From positions 629,001-693,000 of the forward strand of contig NZ_CP139707.1 of the NCBI RefSeq assembly GCF_034377145.1: a DNA stretch of 64,000 nt, read 5' to 3'. Within the stretch, counting starts at the first letter, position 1. Each line of letters begins with the position of its first letter. A model generated the notes under the pieces. That model saw only the letters and a list, made by a program, of their open reading frames with translations. It was not told where the DNA came from and ran no database searches. A program made the translations under genes and the position numbers. The stretch comes from Sulfitobacter sp. OXR-159 (GTDB taxonomy: Bacteria > Pseudomonadota > Alphaproteobacteria > Rhodobacterales > Rhodobacteraceae). Shown in pieces: positions 8,376-62,151 of the stretch.

Positions 8376-8914
8376 GCAGGATCGACGACAGCCGGGATTT
8401 TATTCCCGTAAGAATCGCTGTGCTGACCGTCTCGGACAGTCGCAGCTTGGCCGAGGACCGCTCGGGTGATGTGCTGGTCGGACGGATCGAAGCGGCGGGC
8501 CATGTGCTGGCCGCGCGCGAGATCGTGACCGACGACCGCCCCGCCATTGCGGCGCAACTGCGCGACTGGTGCGCGGACCCTGAGATTGACGTGGTGATCA
8601 GCACCGGCGGCACCGGCCTTACCGGGCGCGACGTAACGGTCGAGGCGCACCGCGATGTCTATGAGAAAGAGATCGATGCTTTCGGCACGGTCTTTACCAT
8701 GATCTCGATGGAGAAGATCGGCACCAGCGCGGTGCAAAGCCGGGCGACGGGTGGCGTTGCGCAGGGAACGTATTTATTCGCGCTGCCGGGCAGCCCGGGG
8801 GCCTGCAAAGACGCATGGGACGGCATCCTGCTTAAGCAGTTGGACTACCGCCACATGCCCTGCAATTTCGTTGAGATCATGCCCCGGTTGGACGAGCATC
8901 AGCGCCGCAAGTAG
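8372..8914 (+). CDS. moaB: Molybdenum cofactor biosynthesis protein B
   Basis: MoaB belongs to the MogA/MoaB family, which adenylylates molybdopterin before molybdenum insertion. The 180-residue protein has the molybdopterin-binding STGGTGLTGRD motif at about 71-81 and the LPGSPGA loop near 132, both conserved. Its start overlaps the stop of the LysE-type gene by four bases. The other molybdenum-cofactor genes of the window lie some 8 kb downstream at fdhD-mobA-mobB/moeA. Confidence 0.93.
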   Translation: MSRIDDSRDFIPVRIAVLTVSDSRSLAEDRSGDVLVGRIEAAGHVLAAREIVTDDRPAIAAQLRDWCADPEIDVVISTGGTGLTGRDVTVEAHRDVYEKEIDAFGTVFTMISMEKIGTSAVQSRATGGVAQGTYLFALPGSPGACKDAWDGILLKQLDYRHMPCNFVEIMPRLDEHQRRK

Positions 8915-8923
8915 CGCCGTAGG

Positions 8924-9736
8924 TTAGCCAGAGGTGCAGCCCGTGATCTCGACCGCGTGGTTCTTGCCGATCACCGTGATCCGAATGGCGGACCGGTCGA
9001 GTGCCAGCGCCGTGCCGTTCTCGGCGATCATCTCGCCGCTGGCGACAAGCGTATTGCCCGACCGCTGGCTGTCCATCTCGCTCATCCACATGTTGGGGTT
9101 GCCGGGCTCAATGACCACGGTCTCCTTACCCCCGGCAGAGGGCAGGGCCAGCCGGGTTTCGATCTCCAGCCCCCGCGCGGTGGGGCGCAGGCTGCATTGG
9201 GCGCTTTTCAATCCAGCCTCGGCACCGGAATAGGGTCGCGCTGCTAAAGCGGCGGCGATGGCCGGGGTGGGCTGGCTGCCACGGGTGTCGAGCAGGGCGC
9301 GCAGGTGGATGGTTTGCGGCAGGCAGATGTCACTGCACACGCCAAGGTCGATGCTGGCGTCCAAGCTTACCGGGGCACCGGGGCGGCGCGGCGTGATGGT
9401 CAGCGGCAGGATGACTTCGCGCGCATAGCCGATGGAGTTCACCCCGCCTTGGTCAAAGACCTTGGGCGCGGGCCATGTGATCTGCACGTCGCGCAGGTTG
9501 TCCGAGCCGGACCAGTCGAACTCTGGCGGGATGCCTGCGTCACCGGGGCTGCGCCAATAGGTCTTCCACCCCGGTGCCATGCGCAGCCGGATCGCCGCCA
9601 CCCGCCGCCCGTCAGACTGTTGCCAACCCGTGAGCAGATCACCCTGCAACGGCGTGCCGACACCGTCCTGTGCGGCGGCAGGCAGGGCAAGGGCAAGGCA
9701 GGAAAGAACGGCGGAGAAGAGGCGCGATATATTCAT
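8924..9736 (-). CDS. Periplasmic DsbD/ScsB-like N-terminal domain protein
   Basis: The 270-residue product begins with a clear signal peptide ending near AAAQD, so it is periplasmic. The body resembles the N-terminal thiol-disulfide domain of DsbD/ScsB, including [12 protein letters not shown] near 57-68 and a cysteine pair in [10 protein letters not shown] (Cys134 and Cys138). The transmembrane and thioredoxin domains of full DsbD are absent, so it must receive electrons from another protein such as CcdA. It is convergent with moaB; a target in periplasmic redox homeostasis is inferred from the domain only. Confidence 0.8.
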
Positions 9737-9885
9737 GGGGTCTTGATGGGGTATCCATCTGCGCCTGCCAAGTCACATTTGCATTATCCATGTTTCGCCG
9801 ATGGGACGGGCGGCGGGCGGCATCTCTTGTTTTGTGGGGCGCAAGCGGCCATGTTCAAAGAAAGGTTACCTTCAGGAGGTGGGCG

Positions 9886-10455
9886 TTGACGGGTCAGACA
9901 ATGGAACTGACGGGCAAGCTGCTGGTCGCGATGCCGGGCATGGGCGATCCACGTTTCGCCCATTCCGTGATCTATCTTTCCGCGCATTCAGAACAGGGCG
10001 CCATGGGGCTGATGGTCAATAAACCCGCCCCGGAACTGCGCCTCTCGGATGTGCTGGATCAATTGGTCGATGACACGCCGCCGCAGGCGAAATCTCTGGC
10101 GGTGCATTTCGGCGGCCCGGTCGAGACGGGGCGTGGCTTTGTGCTGCATTCCGATGAATACCGCTCTGCCCTTGAAACGCTGCGGGTCGGCGATGGCATT
10201 GCGCTGACCGCCACGCGCGACATCCTAGAAGACATCGCGACCGGCAAGGGGCCAGAGCGCGCGCAGTTGATGCTGGGCTATGCGGGCTGGGGGCCGGGGC
10301 AGCTGGAGGGCGAGATTGCGCAGAACGGCTGGCTGACCTGCGAAGCCTCGCCAGAGGTGATCTTTGACCTGCCGGATGCTGAGAAATGGGGCGCGGCGCT
10401 CAAAACGCTTGGCATCGACCCCTTGGGGCTCTCGGCCTCAGCCGGCCATGCCTAG
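9886..10455 (+). CDS. YqgE/AlgH family protein (DUF179)
   Basis: The 189-residue protein is a YqgE/AlgH family member; its biochemical role is unknown. The family signatures [15 protein letters not shown] near the start, [10 protein letters not shown] and [11 protein letters not shown] are all present. A strong AGGAGGT at 9874-9880 lies five bases before a TTG at 9886, while the first ATG (9901) would be 20 bases away. I therefore chose the TTG start. Its stop codon shares the four bases CTAG with the stop of the convergent tsaC gene. Confidence 0.9.
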
Positions 10456-11384
10456 CGCGGCGCGGCGGCGCGGGCCAGACGGTCGTTGATTGCGCGGCCC
10501 AACCCGTGATTGGGGATCGGTGCCACAGCGATTTGCTGACCGGTCGCGTCAAGCTGGTGCAGATGGTCGAAAAGGTTCGCCGCAGCCTCGGTTAAATCGC
10601 CAGCAGGTGAGAGGTTGAGATCACAGATCATCGTCCCAAAGCCAAGCAGCACTTCGCCCGGCCCGGCCGTTTCTGCATCCAACCGCACAGCCGCGCCGGG
10701 GGCGTAGTGGGAGGCCAACTGCCCCGGTGCGATGATCTCTGCCCCATCTACGATCTCGAGCGTTTGTCCGAGCGCCGCTTCAATCGCCTCACTCGGCAGG
10801 CCGCCTGCGCGGAGCAGGGCGGGGCGGGGACCGTTCAGACCGAGGATCGTGCTTTCCAAACCAACAGTGCAGGCGCCGTCATCCAGTACCGCCGCGATCT
10901 TACCGTCGAGGCCCGCCAGCACATGCGCAGCCGTGGTCGCGCTGATCTTGCCCGAGGGGTTGGCCGAGGGCGCGGCCACGGGACCATCGAGTGCCTGCAA
11001 GACCTGCCGCATGGTGGGGTGGGCTGGCACGCGCACCGCAAGGCTGGGCAATCCCGCCGTGACCAGTGACGACAGCCCGCTGTCGGGTTTGAGCGGTAAG
11101 ACCAATGTCAGCGCGCCGGGCCAAAAGGCCTGCGCCAACCGGTCGGCCTCGTCCGTCCACTTAACGTATCGTTTGGCCGTCTCGATATCCGGCAAATGCA
11201 CGATCAGCGGATTGAAGCTGGGCCGCCCCTTGGCGGCATAGATGCCCGCGACGGCTTCCCCATTGCGGGCATCCGCGCCAAGGCCATAGACCGTCTCGGT
11301 CGGCAGAGCGACCAGCGCACCGTCTTGCAGCAGCTTCGCCGCGCGGGCGATGCCTTGAGCCGTGGGGGGCAGCGTCTCGGTCAT
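10452..11384 (-). CDS. tsaC: L-threonylcarbamoyladenylate synthase, two-domain Sua5 type
   Basis: This enzyme forms threonylcarbamoyl-AMP from threonine, bicarbonate and ATP for the t6A37 modification of ANN-decoding tRNAs. The 310-residue length shows the longer Sua5 form. The YrdC domain (about 1-200) has [10 protein letters not shown] near 30, KGRPSFNPL near 54 and SANPSGKIS near 148. The linker SHYAPGA near 235 leads into the C-terminal Sua5 domain. I chose the ATG at 11384; the upstream in-frame extension looks non-coding and would run into the promoter region of the divergent acyl-CoA dehydrogenase. Confidence 0.93.
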
Positions 11385-60239: not shown

Positions 60240-60457
60240 CTAGAGGCCCAGTTCCGCGCGCTTCTTTTTTGTAAGGGCGGCGGCGATCATGTCATAGGAG
60301 GCACGTATGTGGTCGCGCAGGCTGTCTTCGCCTAGGCCGGGTTCGGCGTAATGCTGTATCCATTTTAACCCGCGTGAGGCCAGATAGGGAGCGGGACGCA
60401 GTCCGGGGCTGTCTGAAAGCACCTCAAACCCCAGTTCAGTCACCTTGAAAGTAAAAG
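60240..60457 (-). pseudogene. MmcQ/YjbR family gene, 3' part cut off by an IS element
   Basis: The reverse-strand frame encodes the C-terminal portion of an MmcQ/YjbR protein, including FTFKVTELGFEVL, RPAPYLASRGLKWIQHYAEP and the final KKKRAELGL, and ends at the normal stop. It has no start codon of its own in context. Its other part lies at 62016-62151. Joining the two parts across the CT core restores a 117-codon frame, so the gene was intact before insertion. The function of the family is unknown (a DNA-binding-like fold). Confidence 0.9.
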
Positions 60458-60460
60458 ATG

Positions 60461-60472
60461 CCGTAATGGGGC
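60461..60472 (+). repeat. Left subterminal inverted repeat of the IS element
   Basis: CCGTAATGGGGC is the exact reverse complement of bases 62001-62012. Three bases (ATG) separate it from the AG core at 60456-60457. Confidence 0.92.
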
Positions 60473-60607
60473 TGTCGGCGAATCGAGCACGTTTCGCTTG
60501 CTTGACAGCATGATGTGGAGTGCCGTTGCCCTTGATGCGCCTGCAGCGCGTCTACGAGGTCGTATGTTTCCATGCGCCTCAATTCCTGAGAATAGAAGGG
60601 CAACGAC

Positions 60608-61639
60608 ATGAATGTATTTATCGGACTAGATGTATCTCTGACAAGCACGGCGATTTGTGTGCTGGGGCCGCAAGGGAAGGTTGTTGAGGAGTTGGAGGCC
60701 GCCAGCGAGCCTGAGGCGCTGGTGCGTGCGATGACGTCATTGCCGTACGCGGTCGATGCGATCGGTCTTGAAGCCGGACCACTGTCCCAATGGCTGAGTA
60801 AGGGCATCGAAGAGGCCGGACTTGACGTGGTCTTGATGGAAACGCGGTTGGTGAAAGCCGCTTTGAAAGCCATGCCGATCAAAACCGATCGGCGCGATGC
60901 TCAGGGCATTGCGCGCTTGCTTCAAATGGGATGGTACAGGCCCGTGCACCGCAAATCGGTGTCCTCCCAGGAAATCCGCGCGTTGCTGACAGCGCGCAAG
61001 TCAGTTCAGCAGGCCATCATCAACCTTGAGCTTTCCATGCGGGGTGTTTTGCGGAACTTCGGTCTGAAGCTGGGACACGTCACCCGGATCAGGTACGAGG
61101 CCCGGGTGAGGGAACTGGTTGAGCAGAATGAAATCCTGTCGGCGTCGACAGAGGCCCTTTTGCGCGCGCGTGCGCAGTTGCGCGCCGAGTTGGCTGAATT
61201 GGATGCGACAATCGCGGATCTGGCAAAACAAGACGACGTTTGCCGTCTGATGATGACGATGCCAGGCGTCGGTCGGATCGTCGCCCTGACGGTCAAATCC
61301 GCGATCGACGATCCGACCCGGTTCGCGCGATCGAAGGATGTTGGTCCGTGGGTGGGGCTGACGCCGAGACGTACGCAATCCGGAGAGATGGACATTGTCG
61401 GGCAAATTACTCGAGCCGGTGACCGGGCCCTTCGAACGGCCTTGTATCAAGCGGCGATGATCTTGATGCACCGTGGGTCACCAAACTGGCTCCAGGCCTG
61501 GGCGCTCAGAGTGGCCCATCGGCGTGGATCGAAACGGGCCTTGATTGCACTTGCGCGGCGTATTGGCGTTGTATTGCACCGCATGTGGCGAGACGGCACA
61601 CCATTCCGCCATGTGCAGAGCTCCCCGGCAACGGTCTGA
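60608..61639 (+). CDS. IS110-family (IS1111-type) transposase
   Basis: The 343-residue recombinase has the N-terminal RuvC-like DEDD domain with Asp8 in GLDVS, Glu55 in IGLEAGPLS, and Asp94 and Asp97 in KTDRRDAQG. A helical coiled region lies at about 125-205, and the C-terminal Tnp domain has MPGVGRIVALTVKS near 217-230 and the catalytic serine Ser257 in RTQSGEM. Proteins of this kind use an element-encoded RNA to pair target and donor DNA. The frame is intact, so the element may be active. No other copy is in the window. Confidence 0.95.
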   Translation: MNVFIGLDVSLTSTAICVLGPQGKVVEELEAASEPEALVRAMTSLPYAVDAIGLEAGPLSQWLSKGIEEAGLDVVLMETRLVKAALKAMPIKTDRRDAQGIARLLQMGWYRPVHRKSVSSQEIRALLTARKSVQQAIINLELSMRGVLRNFGLKLGHVTRIRYEARVRELVEQNEILSASTEALLRARAQLRAELAELDATIADLAKQDDVCRLMMTMPGVGRIVALTVKSAIDDPTRFARSKDVGPWVGLTPRRTQSGEMDIVGQITRAGDRALRTALYQAAMILMHRGSPNWLQAWALRVAHRRGSKRALIALARRIGVVLHRMWRDGTPFRHVQSSPATV

Positions 61640-61682
61640 GTAAAATAATTCCAGAACTTGATCTGACGGAGGAACGCACTGC

Positions 61683-61890
61683 ACCTGACGACAGGTACGA
61701 CGAGGTCCCTTGCCGGGACGAGGTTCCTGGAGATGCCGAAAGCCCGCTAGTTATCGGCTAACGCTGAATACGCGTAAAAGATGGGCACCCAGGACCAGAT
61801 TTGGACCAGGCATAGAGTGGCAGCCATGCGGCTGACTACGGACGGAAGAGCGAAGCCCGTGCAAGGGGTGTCCTTCAGTCCTGACGTGCG
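61683..61890 (+). ncRNA. Candidate bridge RNA (seekRNA) of the IS element
   Basis: The non-coding right end folds into successive hairpins. The stem TCCTGG (61725-61730)/CCAGGA (61789-61794) and the inner stem TGCC/GGCA close an internal loop capped by GTTA-TCGGC-TAAC. The loop sides hold GCCCGCT (61742-61748) and GTAAAAG (61774-61780), which match the left target half and the complement of the right target half of the real insertion site GCCCG-CT-TTTAC. A second loop around CAGCC-ATGC-GGCTG has GGCAT (61809-61813) and ACGGAAG (61842-61848), matching the two element ends. RNA boundaries are approximate. Confidence 0.78.
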
Positions 61891-62000
61891 GGTGCAGTGA
61901 AAAAGAAAAAGAAAGCTTCTGAATCTGTGCCTTAAAACTCGGTGAAAGTTGAGATCTTCGCCGGGATTTTTGACTTGCCCGAAACCCTTGACAGAGGCCC

Positions 62001-62012
62001 GCCCCATTACGG
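62001..62012 (-). repeat. Right subterminal inverted repeat of the IS element
   Basis: GCCCCATTACGG is the exact reverse complement of the left repeat at 60461-60472. One base separates it from the AG core at 62014-62015. Confidence 0.92.
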
Positions 62013-62015
62013 AAG

Positions 62016-62151
62016 CGGGCGCATCCTCGGCCCAGCCGCAGATGGCAAAGACCTTGCCGCCCACCTTCCAGACATCCGCATTGCCCCATTGCACGACATG
62101 GGTTGTTCGGGGCAGGGCGGCGCAGAAAGCGTTAAATTCGTCGCGGGTCAT
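62016..62151 (-). pseudogene. MmcQ/YjbR family gene, 5' part cut off by an IS element
   Basis: The frame from ATG at 62151 encodes MTRDEFNAFCAALPRTTHVV and continues through WKVGGKVFAICGWAEDAP, the N-terminal part of an MmcQ/YjbR protein. Beyond the CT core it runs into IS sequence and reads on to a stop inside the element, giving a chimeric tail without family resemblance. The complementary 3' part is at 60240-60457. Confidence 0.9.

What the first reader, a model, noticed from the sequence alone, without database searches (positions are those of the whole stretch)
61640..62015. Bridge RNA encoded at the right end of an IS1111-type element, with guides matching its own insertion site
Seen in sequence: downstream of the transposase gene the non-coding end folds into two internal loops. 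In the first, GCCCGCT (61742-61748) equals one half of the insertion site, and GTAAAAG (61774-61780) is the reverse complement of the other half. The reverse-strand site reads GCCCG-CT-TTTAC, and both guides include the CT core. In the second loop, GGCAT (61809-61813) and ACGGAAG (61842-61848) match the element's two ends in the same left-then-right order. Established: IS110-family recombinases such as IS621 use such target and donor loops with a CT core, and IS1111-group elements encode the RNA (seekRNA) at the right end. Inference: this is the working RNA of this element. A given 7-mer is expected by chance about 2% of the time per orientation in this length, so several ordered matches located in loops are unlikely to be accidental.
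Basis: partly seen in the sequence, partly recalled or inferred. Interest (0 to 1): 0.9.

Follow-up and report, generated by a model that had tools for sequence, protein, structure and literature searches.

The report
Guide RNA of an insertion sequence
A small mobile DNA element carries at its right end the likely blueprint of a guide RNA whose short guide segments match its insertion site, and close relatives with similar guides sit almost always in front of genes of one gene group known from marine-bacterial conjugative plasmids.

Summary
An IS1111-type insertion sequence (window 60458-62015, 343-aa DEDD transposase, 12-bp subterminal inverted repeats) interrupts a yjbR-like gene at GTAAA-AG-CGGGC. 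All four reported matches sit exactly where stated; a relative (G003) keeps the uninterrupted site. Tested on relatives: across 36 target-guide genotypes, guides fit their own flanks far better than permuted flanks (0 of 20,000 for either guide). Donor guides track the element ends (right 6, left 255 of 20,000). Two target-loop stems co-vary (0 of 5,000 each). So this is very probably the element's bridge RNA/seekRNA: a new member of a known kind, without RNA or transposition data. New here: 23 of 24 mapped close-group copies lie in 5' leaders of one gene module (first gene, DUF3768, ParB-like, strawberry-notch, DUF6878) found on RepABC conjugative plasmids. Those leaders share a motif, and different natural guide variants fit different leaders. 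The genome's second copy sits at such a leader; the window copy is the exception. Ten of 67 elements have poor right-guide matches, and single-sequence folding leaves the donor guides mostly paired.

The parts
60458..62015 (+). IS1111-type insertion sequence, 1558 bp, counting the right-hand AG core (62014-62015) as the element's and the left-hand AG (60456-60457) as the target's
   Evidence: second copy on G000:C6, end motifs found in 71 of 85 loci examined, uninterrupted site in relatives
60608..61639 (+). DEDD transposase/recombinase, 343 aa
   Evidence: Pfam PF01548 DEDD_Tnp_IS110 and PF02371 Transposase_20; C-terminal half matches IS621 8wt6 and ISCro4 9t56
60461..60472 (+). left subterminal inverted repeat CCGTAATGGGGC
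62001..62012 (+). right subterminal inverted repeat GCCCCATTACGG
61690..61881 (+). guide-bearing core of the proposed bridge RNA / seekRNA (stretch chosen by me; transcript ends unknown)
   Evidence: z-score -3.86 for 61640-61920, stem covariation
61722..61730 (+). lower target-loop stem, 5' arm GGTTCCTGG (pairs with 61789-61796)
   Evidence: own arms pair better than swapped arms, 0 of 5000 shuffles as good over six pairs of this stem
61739..61748 (+). right target guide AAAGCCCGCT (reverse complement of core AG plus right half of the consensus target)
61753..61769 (+). apical hairpin between the two target guides
   Evidence: 10-22 sequences with both sides changed at each of 5 pairs; 0 of 5000 shuffles as good
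61774..61780 (+). left target guide GTAAAAG (left half of the target plus AG core)
61789..61796 (+). lower target-loop stem, 3' arm CCAGGACC
61809..61813 (+). donor guide for the left end: GGCAT, reverse complement of ATGCC at 60458-60462
   Evidence: varies with the left end among relatives, with exceptions
61818..61838 (+). donor-region hairpin TGGCAGC...GCTGACTA
   Evidence: 21 of 5000 shuffles as good
61842..61848 (+). donor guide for the right end: ACGGAAG, same as 62009-62015
   Evidence: varies with the right end among relatives, with exceptions
61988..61993 (+). TTGACA, possible -35 box of a promoter that exists only at the circle junction (18 nt before GAAG|AT)
   Evidence: 69 of 71 elements have at least 5 of 6 matches to TTGACA 16-18 nt before this junction hexamer; function inferred
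60451..60457 (+). left half of the insertion site, GTAAAAG, with the core AG
62016..62020 (+). right half of the insertion site, CGGGC
62016..62151 (-). 5' part of the interrupted yjbR-like gene
   Evidence: ORF 61747-62151 on the - strand; Pfam YjbR E 1.2e-5, 26.3 bits, below the 30.1-bit cut-off
60240..60457 (-). 3' part of the interrupted yjbR-like gene (end read from the sequence)
   Evidence: uninterrupted order of the two flanks in G003 and G009

Best explanation
61690-61881 holds the guide-bearing core of the bridge RNA (seekRNA) of an IS1111-type element. The RNA has a target loop whose two guides read the right half of the target on the top strand (AAAGCCCGCT) and the left half on the bottom strand (GTAAAAG), overlapping at the AG/CT core, and a donor region whose two guides read the element's own left and right ends (GGCAT, ACGGAAG). 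With the RNA, the transposase would join the excised, circular element to a matching target without adding bases. Sequence, position and co-variation with flanks and ends are shown; transcription, binding and recombination are inferred from the experimentally studied relatives ISEc11 and IS621. The clade to which it belongs mostly sits at a motif repeated in 5' leaders of one gene module known from RepABC conjugative plasmids; the copy in the window is a chromosomal landing at a site that fits both guides (7 of 7 and 7 of 9).
For: Element anatomy and empty sites. Guides fit own flanks: 57 of 67 elements have at least 7 of 9 Watson-Crick matches for the right guide and 65 of 67 at least 5 of 7 for the left guide, core bases included (listing). 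Permutation over 36 genotypes on non-core bases only: left guide 4.12 of 5 own versus 1.87 permuted (max 2.78), right guide 6.19 of 7 own versus 4.83 permuted (max 5.32), 20,000 permutations. Donor guides, on distinct combinations: right (10) 6.60 own versus 5.90, 6 of 20,000; left (11) 4.36 versus 4.00, 255 of 20,000. Stems on 45 sequences: lower and apical target-loop stems 0 of 5000 shuffles as good, donor hairpin 21 of 5000; RNAalifold finds 22 pairs, 8 with changes on both sides. Leaders: 23 of 24 mapped close-group copies; in ten plasmid regions the top predicted site of six guide pairs lies in a marked leader in 46 of 60 scans (counted); leader motif with 8 matches in 154.6 kb, each before a module gene, and 0.0 per shuffled set.
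Against: No Rfam family matches beyond chance, and there are no RNA or activity data here. Right-guide matches of 6 of 9 or fewer occur in 10 of 67 elements (L007, L036, L037, L038, L047, L049, L053, L064, L086, L089), and the left guide fits poorly in L036 and L052. Only 22 of 36 genotypes rank their own site first, partly because several genotypes share a target. The right guide was scored as the best 9-mer (7-mer in the permutation) in a short segment, for own and permuted flanks alike. Permutations do not remove relatedness, and several copies come from one genome (L013-L016; L017-L020). The TGCC/GGCA stem gives no clear signal (467 of 5000). Left-end donor guides miss one base in 9 elements with guide AGCAT and in several others. 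Donor guides are predicted paired in the single-sequence fold. In the own genome 144 places lie within 3 mismatches of the 15-base consensus target, no more than for the reversed control (152), so the yjbR insertion is compatible with the guides but not predicted by them alone.
Confidence: 0.95

Rival explanations
1. The matches are chance or relics: the right end is non-coding spacer, and site specificity comes from the protein reading DNA.
For: A single 7-mer match is expected about 2% of the time in 376 positions; some relatives have poor matches.
Against: Guides follow flanks across 36 genotypes (0 of 20,000 permutations), two stems co-vary, and elements with closely related transposases but different guide letters sit at correspondingly different sites.
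Confidence: 0.02
2. The right-end segments match because the element picked up target sequence during past insertions, so the matches record sites and do not choose them.
For: Would also give guide/flank correlation; in L053 a stretch of the non-coding region seems duplicated beyond a first right end, so ends can be rearranged.
Against: The matches are split in two, on opposite strands, in one order at homologous places in a conserved fold, with the core in both; one guide pair fits several different sites. ISEc11 was reprogrammed experimentally (PMC11187229, abstract and the start of that section seen).
Confidence: 0.02
3. It is a bridge RNA gene, but this copy is no longer active.
For: The second copy in the genome is interrupted near its right end by another element, putatively IS1380-like (name by recall).
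Against: The window copy has an open transposase frame, both ends and the four guides; 100% identical transposases occur in Actibacterium ureilyticum, and the two copies in this genome agree in transposase and right end.
Confidence: 0.15

Closest known systems
ISEc11 / ISXne4 (IS1111 family) seekRNA, PMC11187229
   Same: downstream non-coding region, subterminal inverted repeats, top-strand match 5' of bottom-strand match, natural redirection by guide replacement, promoter formed at the circle junction (read in part: abstract, parts 1 and 2 of 4 of Results, section 13)
   Different: different guides and targets; here donor-end guides also co-vary and several redirected variants are seen in one lineage; nothing shown experimentally
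IS621 bridge RNA (IS110 group), PMC11208160 (passages and section 12 read); structure 8wt6
   Same: target and donor guides with a shared core; C-terminal half of the recombinase related (E 2.8e-13, residues 190-340)
   Different: IS110-group RNAs lie mostly in the left, upstream end and the repeats are short; here the RNA is at the right end, the guide order is that of IS1111, and the donor guides are not clearly in a simple internal loop
ISCro4 transposase, PDB 9t56 (depositors' name)
   Same: best solved-structure match by sequence, E 1.1e-14 over residues 189-340
   Different: only the C-terminal half matched by phmmer
IS4321/IS5075 (IS1111 family) in Tn21 terminal repeats (seen as a reference title and a mention)
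   Same: an IS1111 element that lives in a sequence repeated on other mobile elements
   Different: here the repeated sequence is a plasmid gene leader; a sister clade sits at the 3' end of an apparently IS5-like transposase gene (11 of 15 loci examined)

Membership tests
IS1111 family | DEDD (RuvC-like) plus Transposase_20 transposase of 330-350 aa | tested here: met
   343 aa, PF01548 and PF02371 above cut-off; length range
IS1111 family | GL-P----S(T)G motif | tested here: met
   GLTPRRTQSG in the translation; motif from PMC11187229
IS1111 family | subterminal inverted repeats of 7-17 bp | tested here: met
   12 bp CCGTAATGGGGC/GCCCCATTACGG; range
IS1111 family | long non-coding region downstream of the transposase gene | tested here: met
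   376 nt downstream (61640-62015) versus 150 nt upstream (60458-60607)
IS1111 family | top-strand target match 5' of bottom-strand match | tested here: met
   right guide 61739-61748 precedes left guide 61774-61780 (rule)
IS1111 family | precise insertion without added bases | tested here: met
   uninterrupted site in G003 equals the joined flanks at the site with one AG core
IS1111 family | RNA from the non-coding region bound by the transposase | not testable with these tools
   needs RNA sequencing of the complex
IS1111 family | circular intermediate with junction promoter | tested here: inconclusive
   at least 5 of 6 matches to TTGACA 16-18 nt before GAAG|AT in 69 of 71 elements; circle itself not testable
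IS110 group (IS621 type) | RNA in the left, upstream non-coding end | tested here: not met
   guides lie downstream of the transposase gene
known Rfam RNA family | match to a covariance model | tested here: not met
   one chance-level hit, mir-462, E 4.8

The most novel reading that the evidence does not exclude
This clade of bridge-RNA elements is specialised on a plasmid regulon: it reads a leader motif (about GAAAAGTGAAAG/CGGGCTTTG, with variants) repeated in front of up to six genes of a putative establishment/anti-defence module of Roseobacter-group RepABC conjugative plasmids, and small natural guide changes move it from one leader to a paralogous one. The element thereby rides the plasmid from host to host, and its guides mark a so far unnamed regulatory box (possibly an operator or single-strand promoter) of genes used just after conjugation.
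Probability: 0.4. Interest if true: 0.7.

Novelty: new member of a known kind. Interest (0 to 1): 0.5.

Why it matters
In the papers seen here, guide-to-target rules for IS1111-type bridge RNAs rest on few tested elements. This family gives dozens of natural guide/target/end combinations on one RNA scaffold, including redirections among transposases 86-100% identical to the query, usable to derive pairing rules (where G-U pairs are tolerated, how long the right guide is). It also suggests a programmable element specialised on a sequence repeated within conjugative plasmids, and points to a shared leader motif, for which I found no description, in a likely plasmid establishment module.

Tried and rejected
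Rfam search of 60400-62100: only a chance-level hit. First idea that the close-group targets are intrinsic terminators: this fits in appearance only the ParB-leader sites of L026-L028, L039 and L040, which fold as GC stems before T runs; the other sites, L031 included, do not fold that way, so the shared feature is the leader motif. RNAalifold on the plain MAFFT alignment missed most of the lower target-loop stem because the 5' arm is shifted in part of the family; I tested the arms directly, choosing per sequence the better of two offsets against its own partner and keeping that arm in the shuffles, which favours the real pairing somewhat. From 195 relatives in the genome scan only the best 80 were returned. 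Of 85 loci, 14 lacked a recognised pair of ends; one of these, the second copy in the own genome, was added back by hand. In the close group that left out L029, L033 and L059 (24 of 27 mapped). L013, L014, L024, L034 and L073 were dropped from the flank test for short flanks. In one search, 11 of 60 guide-by-region scans had their top site outside a marked leader and 3 had no site above the threshold; some of the 46 leader sites are already occupied by an element. The motif was written after seeing the leaders; the leader of the first module gene fits only its left half. Three literature searches listed no paper that from title or abstract describes IS1111 elements targeting such leaders; the library is incomplete, only the listed papers were looked at, and supplements were not searched.

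Full report
What is there. The window holds a complete IS1111-type insertion sequence at 60458-62015. It encodes a 343-aa transposase with both IS110-family Pfam domains, has 12-bp subterminal inverted repeats and a 376-nt non-coding right end. Its boundaries are fixed by a second copy on another contig of the same genome, identical in transposase and in the right-end sequence compared, by end motifs found in 71 of 85 loci examined, and by uninterrupted sites in two same-genus genomes. In G003 the site reads GTAAAAGCGGGCGC, the two window flanks with one AG core; in G009 it reads GTGAAAGCAGGCGC. The element interrupts a yjbR-like gene.

The guides. The right target guide is longer than noted: AAAGCCCGCT at 61739-61748 pairs with AG-CGGGCTTT, the target of the second copy and of L017-L021; the yjbR site matches only the seven bases nearest the core. 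The order (right half first, read on the top strand; then left half, read on the bottom strand) is the order reported for IS1111 elements (PMC11187229: abstract, parts 1 and 2 of Results and section 13 read).

Test across relatives. I took the 80 best of 195 loci from one scan of the species-genome collection, three loci of the same genome, the window and the second copy. Seventy-two elements had both ends (71 plus the second copy), 67 had enough flank. In the close group (transposase 86-100% identical to the query), guide letters change together with the flanks: L027 carries AAGGCCCGC at a site AGCGGGCCTT, L030 AAGGAAAC at AGTTTCCTT, L032 AAGGACACT at AGTGTCCTT, L031 AGGCCCAC at AGTGGGCCT; the left guide is GGGAAAG, GTGAAAG or GTAAAAG, following the left flanks within one or two bases, some of these G-U pairs. 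More distant elements (62-72%) have other guides that mostly match their own flanks, some at 9 of 9 (L041, L042, L044, L048, L055). On 36 distinct genotypes, with core bases left out, own flanks score 4.12 of 5 (left) and 6.19 of 7 (right) against 1.87 and 4.83 for permuted flanks, with no permutation of 20,000 as high. Against this: 10 of 67 elements have 6 or fewer of 9 right-guide matches, two have poor left guides, and only 22 of 36 genotypes rank their own site first.

Donor guides and structure. The two donor segments follow the element's ends: guides GGCAT, AGCAT, GGTAT and GACAT occur with left ends ATGCC, ATGCT, ATACC and ATGTC; guides ACGGAAG, ACCGAAG, ACAGAAG, ATGGAAG and ACGAAAG each occur with the same right end in at least one element. 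Exceptions exist: nine elements pair AGCAT with ATGCC, and four with right end ACAGAAG keep ACGGAAG (a possible G-U pair). Permutation over distinct combinations: 6 of 20,000 for the right, 255 of 20,000 for the left. The lower and apical stems of the target loop co-vary (0 of 5000 shuffles; 10-22 sequences changed on both sides at each apical pair); the donor hairpin does so less (21 of 5000) and the short TGCC/GGCA stem not clearly (467 of 5000). The window sequence alone folds better than shuffles (z -3.86), but most donor-guide bases come out paired; PMC11208160 (section 12 read) notes that many IS1111 RNAs place donor-binding bases in a multiloop.

Where this clade lands. The close group has 27 copies, 24 of them with both ends. 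Of these, 23 lie by BLAST of their flanks in the 5' leader of a gene in one module: 7 DUF3768, 7 strawberry-notch helicase, 6 ParB-like, 2 the first gene of the module, 1 DUF6878. Eleven are placed by both flanks and twelve by one (five because the contig ends, two because the other flank hits a place with no gene marked by me, five because the other flank gives no hit, with genes). The window copy is the one exception. Copies are not independent: L013-L016 come from one strain and L017-L020 from another, the latter on three named plasmids; whether the other contigs are plasmids was not tested. In ten annotated plasmid regions, six guide pairs gave 60 scans: the top site lies in a marked leader in 46, elsewhere in 11, and 3 have no site above the threshold. 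Leader sites lie at nearly fixed distances before the same genes (DUF3768 -44/-45, strawberry-notch -49 to -51, ParB-like -90/-92, first gene -86/-101, DUF6878 -112, DUF736 -100/-101). Printed side by side, leaders of five genes share about GAAAAGNGAAAG/YNGGCYTT, and the first gene's leader shares its left half; a motif written from these, with one mismatch allowed, finds 8 matches in 154.6 kb of four plasmid loci, each before a module gene, and 0.0 per set in 20 single-base shuffles. Different guide genotypes fit different leaders. On a transposase tree the ParB type is clustered (2 changes, 0 of 500 shuffles as low), the first-gene type less surely (43 of 500), the DUF3768 and strawberry-notch types not (142 and 79 of 500; few well-supported branches).

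What the plasmids are. tblastn with the ArdC-like protein finds 208 plasmid records, 145 of them predicted conjugative. On pDSHI03 and pRR4-35_2 the module lies between repABC and the relaxase gene, and its main genes point towards the relaxase. It includes an ArdC antirestriction protein, a ParB-like protein and a PrlF/YhaV pair. This resembles leading-region anti-defence islands (PMC11541004, passages read) and establishment regulons with shared upstream sequences (PMC8708921, passages read), but oriT was not located, so a leading-region role is an inference. A sister clade sits at the 3' end of an apparently IS5-like transposase gene in 11 of 15 loci examined (family named by recall).

How it likely works. 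Shown: anatomy, guides, covariation, sites. Inferred: joined ends create TTGACA-18-GAAGAT; at least 5 of 6 matches to this -35 box at spacing 16-18 are present in 69 of 71 elements. This may drive transposase and RNA from the circle, as a junction promoter was reported for ISEc11; the RNA would then bring circle junction and target together at the AG core. The window site fits both guides (7 of 7, 7 of 9), and its exact 12-mer occurs nowhere intact in the genome, but 144 places lie within three mismatches of the consensus target, no more than the 152 of the reversed control, so why this one was used is open.

Verdict. The finding is right, and is a new member of a known kind, with an unexpected target niche.

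Noticed in passing
L093, L098, L100, L101, L103, L104, leaders upstream of DUF3768, ParB-like, strawberry-notch, DUF6878, DUF736 and the first module gene: A repeated motif of about GAAAAGNGAAAG/YNGGCYTT in several leaders of one plasmid module, possibly a shared regulatory box.
   Followed up: partly
G000:C6, about 8743-10641 (L004): The second copy of the element is split near its right end by another element with a 5-bp TTGAC repeat; its 451-aa transposase looks IS1380-like (name by recall).
   Followed up: partly
L053, after the first right end: The stretch following the donor guide appears again after a first right end, followed by a second right end about 160 bp on, as if end and donor guide had recombined.
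   Followed up: no
L060, L063, L067, L070, L079-L081, L085, L087, L089, L090: A sister clade (62-65% identical transposase) sits at the 3' end of an apparently IS5-like transposase gene, target about CAATG-AG-TCCTGA.
   Followed up: partly
G000, 20 places: The genome holds 20 matches to IS110-family transposases, several at identical scores on chromosome and smaller contigs.
   Followed up: no
L021 (MAG labelled Candidatus Scalindua): A 98% identical copy at a Roseobacter-type plasmid leader in a planctomycete bin, perhaps a binning error.
   Followed up: no
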